A stretch of DNA of 64,000 nucleotides, from contig CM039462.1 of assembly GCA_022414725.1 (NCBI GenBank), positions 95,779,188 through 95,843,187 on the forward strand, read 5' to 3'. The notes beneath the pieces were generated by a model that was not told the DNA's origin, did no database searches, and was given only the letters and a program-made list of their open reading frames with translations. Of the stretch, positions 29,530-61,267 are shown one piece after another (the first letter of the stretch is position 1; each line of letters opens with the position of its first letter). The position numbers were made by a program, and so were the translations under genes. The DNA is from Microglena sp. YARC. Its lineage: Eukaryota; Chlorophyta; Chlorophyceae; Chlamydomonadales; Chlamydomonadaceae.

Positions 29530-30115
29530 TCTATCGTCCATGTGGAATGGGGGGTCCTATCGTCCACCTAGTATGGGGGGTCTACCTGGTATGGGGGGCC
29601 CTATCGTCCACCTAGTATGGGGGGTCCACCTGGTATGGGGGGTCCTATCGTCCACCTAGTACGGGGGGTCCACCTGGTATGGGGGTTCCTATCGTCCACC
29701 TAGTATGGGAGGTCCACCTGGTATGGGGGGTCCTATCGTCCACCTAGTATGGGGGGTCCACCTTGTATGGGGGTCCTATCGTCCACCTAGTATGGGGGTC
29801 CACCTGGTATGGGGGGCTCTATCGTCCACCTGGTATGGGGGTCCTATCGTCCACCTAGTATGGGGGTCCTATCGTCCACCTAGTATGGGGGGTGAACCTG
29901 GTATGGGGGTCCTATCGTCCACCTAGTATTGGGGGTCCACCTGGTATGGGGGGTCCTATCGTTCACCTATTATGGGGGGTCCACCTGGTATGGGGGGTCC
30001 TATCGTTCACCTAGTATGGGGGGTCCACCTGGTATGGGGGGTCCTATCGTCCACCTAGTATGGGGGGTCCACCTGGTATGGGGGGTCCTATCGTCCACCT
30101 AGTATGGGGGGTCAA
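29530..30115 (+). repeat. 44-bp G-rich minisatellite
   Basis: The unit combines TCCTATCGTCCACCTAGTAT and GGTCCACCTGGTAT with G runs, about 13 copies. Reading frames such as GGPIVHLVWG are repeat artefacts. Confidence 0.88.

Positions 30116-61267: not shown

What the first reader, a model, noticed from the sequence alone, without database searches (positions are those of the whole stretch)
29530..61267. Introns inflated by tandem arrays built from exon edges and their splice sites, in two neighbouring genes
In gene A (minus) and gene B (plus) almost every intact exon is surrounded by truncated tandem copies. Copies of its 5' edge with acceptor lie upstream, and copies of its 3' edge with donor lie downstream. 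This was seen for gene A exons 1-4 and gene B exons 1, 3, 4, 5, 6, 7 and 8. Only one copy per set has both edges, and those single copies join in compatible reading phase. It looks like repeated tandem duplication across splice junctions, which lengthens introns without harming the coding frame and leaves many decoy splice sites.
Basis: partly seen in the sequence, partly recalled or inferred. Interest (0 to 1): 0.92.

Follow-up and report, generated by a model that had tools for sequence, protein, structure and literature searches.

The report
Exon-edge minisatellites filling two genes' introns
Two neighbouring genes of an unidentified eukaryote, possibly a green alga, have introns made mostly of tandem copies of the exon borders, splice sites included; amphioxus has the same kind of repeat, called mirages, and here the copies look like tolerated by-products of repeated local duplication that splicing must ignore.

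Summary
I rebuilt two spliced genes: A (minus; transmembrane segment, low-complexity tail) and B (plus; two CBM20 starch-binding domains). Of 18 splice edges, 16 have tandem copies; only B3 donor and B4 acceptor lack them. Of 91 spanning copies plus one stray found in the whole window on both strands, all but the stray lie in the edge's own intron. Six of seven internal exons have one copy with both edges; exon B2 is a whole-exon triplicate. Junction-anchored arrays fill about 74% of intron length (14,676 of 19,949 bp). Decoys look non-coding: no significant codon-position bias, and 1 of 229 decoy donor/acceptor pairings keeps the frame open.

The structure matches a published kind, "mirages" of amphioxus genes (PMC3087553), on a larger scale. 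Tandem duplication across junctions is supported. A special tendency of exon edges to duplicate is not: 76-85% of positions in these genes lie in repeats; a rotation control gives P 0.59 for any repeat, 0.037 for complex repeats. That splicing ignores the decoys is inferred; no RNA was available. Organism and genome-wide extent could not be tested.

The parts
41093..41318 (-). Gene A exon A1, part after the ATG of the transmembrane segment; donor AAAAG|GTGTGT. A signal-peptide/proline-rich frame starts at 41925 but is out of frame with this part
38387..41092 (-). 27 decoy copies of the A1 3' edge with donor, mostly about 104 bp apart, all 27 with GT
37454..37639 (-). One decoy copy of the A2 5' edge with acceptor
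37337..37453 (-). Gene A exon A2 (only copy with both edges)
35780..36779 (-). 5 decoy copies of the A2 3' edge (3 with GT)
34605..35682 (-). 4 decoy copies of the A3 5' edge, all with AG
34479..34604 (-). Gene A exon A3
33201..34478 (-). A3 3'-edge array: 4 decoy donors with GT plus rearranged copies
32565..32911 (-). 2 decoy copies of the A4 5' edge with AG
32215..32564 (-). Gene A last exon A4, ends in stop codon
31682..32214 (-). Tandem copies of the coding end (stop codon) of A4, TRF period 182 bp; no splice site
47767..47857 (+). Putative exon B1 (frame to B2 not resolved)
   Evidence: sequence
47858..48544 (+). 4 decoy copies of the B1 3' edge with donor
48891..49522 (+). Exon B2 (48896-49007) and two further whole-exon copies (49143, 49396), each with AG and GT and open in the same frame
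49816..50385 (+). 3 decoy copies of the B3 5' edge with AG
50386..50569 (+). Exon B3, first half of CBM20 domain 1; no donor copies
51277..51490 (+). Exon B4, second half of CBM20 domain 1; no acceptor copies
51491..52865 (+). 5 decoy copies of the B4 3' edge (3 with GT)
52807..53549 (+). 4 decoy copies of the B5 5' edge, all with AG, each holding 52 nt of exon
53550..53699 (+). Exon B5
53700..54652 (+). About 6 decoy copies of the B5 3' edge, five of them holding 31 nt of exon, one doubtful
56557..57126 (+). 4 decoy copies of the B6 5' edge with AG
57127..57437 (+). Exon B6, first half of CBM20 domain 2
57438..59234 (+). 13 decoy copies of the B6 3' edge (12 with GT)
59563..60492 (+). 6 decoy copies of the B7 5' edge (5 with AG)
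60493..60718 (+). Exon B7, second half of CBM20 domain 2, ends in TAA
60719..61086 (+). Tandem copy of the coding end of B7; no splice site

Best explanation
These are mirage-type minisatellites: non-coding tandem arrays whose unit (roughly 80-270 bp) happens to include an exon border. The locus has a high rate of local tandem duplication. In a short ancestral intron most duplications long enough to make a minisatellite cross one junction; those leave one copy with both edges, so the message is unchanged and they survive. Duplications that cut an exon elsewhere break the protein and are lost. Each intron thus grew from both ends, a donor array from the upstream exon and an acceptor array from the downstream exon. 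Splicing then has to join the outermost donor to the outermost acceptor and skip the decoys, most simply by exon definition, since only the intact copy has an acceptor and a donor a short exon apart. Shown here: anatomy, phases, non-coding behaviour of decoys, and local stepwise duplication in two of four arrays examined. Inferred: ancestral short introns, neutrality, exon definition.
For: Copies on 16 of 18 splice edges, 91 of 92 spanning matches in the edge's own intron, with near-constant exon share in several arrays. Open reading frame through the intact copies and CBM20 domains continuous across the B3-B4 and B6-B7 joins. Singleton decoy changes by codon position 38/31/48 (P 0.16) and shared ones 14/15/21 (P 0.42). 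1 of 229 decoy pairings keeps frame without stop (B1-B2 intron not included, only AG/GT decoys used). Copy spacings that are multiples of 3: 21 of 86 by my sum over the rows, no excess. Identity declines with distance between copies in the A1 and B6 donor arrays. Arrays at stop codons and in flanking DNA show that no splice site is needed. Innermost decoy pairs are 118-1935 bp apart, median 404 over 9 introns, against 707-3639 bp for the whole introns (B3-B4 has no decoys). A rough geometric model gives 97, 74 and 52% of admissible duplications crossing a junction for ancestral introns of 118, 250 and 400 bp.
Against: No RNA data. Splice dinucleotides of copies are kept somewhat more than average neighbouring pairs (85 of 91 rows against 68.8 expected; mean rank 0.64 over 15 arrays), which could hint at use of some decoys, though copies are not independent and two B5 rows are out of register by my reading. 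Complex repeats are mildly enriched at edges (P 0.037). The three B2 copies all keep both edges and an open frame. Identity does not fall with distance in the B5 donor array and hardly in the B7 array. The geometric model rests on unit lengths and an exon cap that I chose, and gives only 29% for ancestral introns of 814 bp.
Confidence: 0.8

Rival explanations
1. The copies are used: they are alternative donors and acceptors, giving regulated isoforms or a poison-splicing switch.
For: AG or GT kept in 80 of 86 counted decoys, somewhat above the array average. Exon B2 exists as three whole, open copies.
Against: 1 of 229 decoy pairings gives an open frame; changes in decoys show no significant codon-position bias; stop-codon edges are duplicated as well. 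A poison-splicing role is not excluded by these tests.
Confidence: 0.1
2. Exon edges are true hot spots: something about splice junctions (for example R-loops or transcription-coupled breaks) directs duplication there.
For: 8 of 11 complex arrays found by TRF inside the two genes hold a real or counted decoy edge and a ninth holds donor sequence; complex-repeat rotation test P 0.037.
Against: For any repeat the rotation test gives P 0.59; 15 of the 28 complex arrays of the window lie outside the genes and their ends (my count); short ancestral introns plus selection give the same pattern.
Confidence: 0.07
3. Assembly artefact: reads over repeats were stitched wrongly.
For: Long C or G runs (14-30 bases) lie in and around the arrays and gene A has a frame break in its proline-rich 5' part.
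Against: Copies are diverged (65-95% identity) and of varied spacing, which stuttering would hardly produce. Exact copy numbers could still be wrong.
Confidence: 0.03

Closest known systems
[quoted passage not shown] globin genes BflGb6 and BflGb9). PMC3087553: passages and section 16 whole; the original Adh3 paper (PMC117041) is not held and was not read
   Same: Tandem units span an exon-intron boundary; both 5' and 3' boundaries affected; unit 150-160 bp in BflGb6; copies 81-100% alike there; many but not all copies keep AG/GT; one authentic copy
   Different: Here two whole genes and 16 of 18 edges are affected, with up to 27 decoys in one array, in an unidentified organism (possibly a green alga); the amphioxus cases had RT-PCR and haplotype data, this one has none
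Intron creation by tandem duplication of AG/GT proto-splice sites (Rogers 1989; Gao and Lynch 2009), as cited in PMC3087553; the primary papers were not read (not held)
   Same: Internal tandem duplication produces new splice-site copies
   Different: No new intron is seen; existing introns are lengthened
Tandem exon duplication with mutually exclusive exons (recalled)
   Same: Exon B2 is three whole copies
   Different: The other exons' copies are truncated and lack one edge
Introner elements (recalled)
   Same: Repeated sequence makes up introns
   Different: Units belong to their own intron: 91 of 92 spanning matches of the 18 edges in the whole window

Membership tests
Mirage minisatellites | Tandem repeats of minisatellite size | tested here: met
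   TRF periods 104-247 bp for arrays holding a splice edge; spacings
Mirage minisatellites | Unit spans an exon-intron boundary | tested here: met
   16 of 18 splice edges
Mirage minisatellites | Many copies keep AG/GT signals | tested here: met
   80 of 86 counted decoys
Mirage minisatellites | Regular splicing is not disturbed | not testable with these tools
   No RNA data held; indirect support from the open frame
Mirage minisatellites | Copy-number instability between haplotypes | not testable with these tools
   Only one sequence available
Mutually exclusive or alternative whole exons | Each copy has both splice sites | tested here: not met
   Met only for exon B2; the other 6 of 7 internal exons have one two-edged copy
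Intron gain by tandem duplication | A new intron inside an old exon | not tested
   No homologous gene structure could be fetched
Introners | One sequence family in many introns | tested here: not met
   Within this window: 91 of 92 spanning matches lie in the edge's own intron

The most novel reading that the evidence does not exclude
In this lineage junction-crossing tandem duplication is the main engine of intron growth, so that most long introns are paired mirages, and the spliceosome tolerates dozens of intact-looking decoys because it recognises exons rather than introns, choosing the outermost donor and acceptor against the proximity rule.
Probability: 0.35. Interest if true: 0.75.

Novelty: new member of a known kind. 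Interest (0 to 1): 0.5.

Why it matters
If general, it shows a simple route by which introns become long without transposons, and supplies natural genes with many near-identical competing splice sites of which presumably one is right: a direct test of how a spliceosome tells real from decoy sites. It also warns that gene prediction and short-read mapping are likely to fail in such genes.

Tried and rejected
Rejected: decoys as in-frame repeat-domain exons; decoys as coding exons under selection; a repeat family shared between introns of this window; strong edge specificity (only a weak signal for complex repeats). Of the Haematococcus genome paper PMC10400597 only passages were seen; those say nothing on exon-edge arrays. 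Pfam scans of 7.7-26 kb to find an intron-bearing control gene were empty (the minus strand of 7.7-16.85 kb was not scanned). Histone searches against the PDB did not settle the organism; the green-alga guess rests on recall and general features.

Full report
What is there. Two genes lie head to head in the window. Gene A (minus) has four coding exons and encodes a transmembrane segment (my reading of the sequence) followed by a low-complexity tail without Pfam match; gene B (plus) has exons B2-B7 (and a doubtful B1) and encodes two CBM20 starch-binding domains. The intact exons join in compatible phase: gene A in phase 1 at each junction; gene B in phases 1, 2, 0, 0, 2 from B2 on. The two CBM20 domains run without a break across the B3-B4 and B6-B7 joins (profile 4-90 and 4-91 of 97), so these choices of intact copy do not rest on frame alone.

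The arrays. Each splice edge (60 exon and 50 intron bases) was aligned to its gene region and to the whole window on both strands; each exon with 250 bp flanks was aligned to its gene region. Sixteen of 18 splice edges have spanning copies; B3 donor and B4 acceptor, which flank a (CCAAC)n intron, have none. Of 92 spanning matches besides the edges themselves, 91 lie in the edge's own intron and one, weak, elsewhere (my sum). Acceptor-edge copies lie upstream and donor-edge copies downstream, as tandem duplication across one junction must give. In several arrays the exon share is constant (52 nt for the B5 acceptor, 31 nt for the five full B5 donor copies, 60-62 nt for four of five B4 donor copies). 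One search counted 86 decoys (B1 and the B2 acceptor left out), 80 with AG or GT. The arrays fill 14,676 of 19,949 intron bases, measured by hand-set limits from first to last copy, short gaps and the extra B2 copies included. B2 is three whole copies, each with AG and GT and an open frame. The coding ends of A4 and B7 are duplicated as well although no splice site is there.

What the copies are. Differences unique to one decoy fall on codon positions 38/31/48 (P 0.16), differences shared by decoys 14/15/21 (P 0.42), while differences of the intact copy from all decoys avoid the second position (7/0/6, P 0.04; small numbers) (two out-of-register B5 rows, B1, the B2 copies and arrays with fewer than two copies were left out). 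A cruder count without polarising, over all rows, shows a third-position excess (12.8, 10.3 and 16.8% mismatches), as expected if the intact copy is constrained; it mixes both lineages. Of 229 pairings that use at least one AG/GT decoy, one keeps the frame without a stop (the B1-B2 intron was not included). By my sum over the rows, 21 of 86 spacings are multiples of three. So the decoys are best seen as non-coding. Splice dinucleotides are kept in 85 of 91 rows against 68.8 expected from neighbouring pairs, mean rank 0.64 over 15 arrays; the copies are related, so this is weak, but it leans against full neutrality.

How they arose. Identity between copies falls with their distance apart in the A1 and B6 donor arrays (0.97 to 0.85 and 0.91 to 0.73), hardly in B7 and not in B5 (four arrays examined): local stepwise duplication in the first two. 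TRF, filtered to periods of 45 bp or more and non-simple units, lists 28 arrays in the window; 11 lie inside the two genes, 8 of them hold a real or counted decoy edge, a ninth holds donor sequence with a rearranged exon side, two hold none. Two more hold the stop-codon ends, and 15 lie outside (my count). In a rotation control the edges are no more often inside repeats than random gene positions (15 against 14.7, P 0.59); for complex repeats, which cover 68% of gene A and 56% of gene B positions, there is a mild excess (15 against 10.8, P 0.037) (the B2 acceptor fails its stricter criterion, hence 15 and not 16). Short ancestral introns explain edge dominance: the innermost decoy pairs are 118-1935 bp apart, median 404, and a rough model with unit lengths and limits that I set gives 97, 74, 52 and 29% of admissible duplications crossing a junction for introns of 118, 250, 400 and 814 bp.

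How splicing would cope. The frame requires the outermost donor with the outermost acceptor. Choice of the nearest pair would take the innermost decoys and, almost always give a broken product. Exon definition would pick the intact copy, as it alone has both edges a short exon apart. This is inference; no RNA was available.

What is known. PMC3087553 (section 16 read) describes the same structure in amphioxus globin genes and, citing earlier work, in Adh3, under the name mirages, with RT-PCR evidence that regular splicing is not disturbed and with copy-number differences between haplotypes. The present case meets the anatomical features that could be tested. It differs in scale and perhaps in lineage. 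I could not establish the organism, nor whether other genes of the genome look the same, nor whether algal cases are in print.

Noticed in passing
48891-49522: Exon B2 exists as three whole copies of 112 nt, each with AG and GT and open in the same frame; 112 is not a multiple of 3, so joining two of them in one message would shift the frame.
   Followed up: partly
30996-31697: A further array (113-134 bp unit) downstream of gene A, on the minus strand with donor-like GTAAG after CACAAGCAACCTG; may be a mirage of an unseen exon or of a 3' untranslated region.
   Followed up: no
41093-41925: Gene A's signal-peptide and proline-rich frame and its transmembrane frame are offset, with poly-C tracts between; perhaps a sequencing error or a wrong start.
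   Followed up: partly
54660-56560: Intron B5-B6 holds about 1.9 kb of CATGCCCACCCC repeats, many ending in CACAG, perhaps a degenerate form of the B6 acceptor edge (65% matches).
   Followed up: no
15345-17656: Array of 32 copies of a 71-bp unit outside any recognised gene; tandem duplication is common in this window generally.
   Followed up: no
3227-7692: Gypsy-like retrotransposon frames, judged by eye, without nearby repeats in the sliding scan; the H2B and H2A genes at 26.4-27.4 kb also lack them.
   Followed up: no
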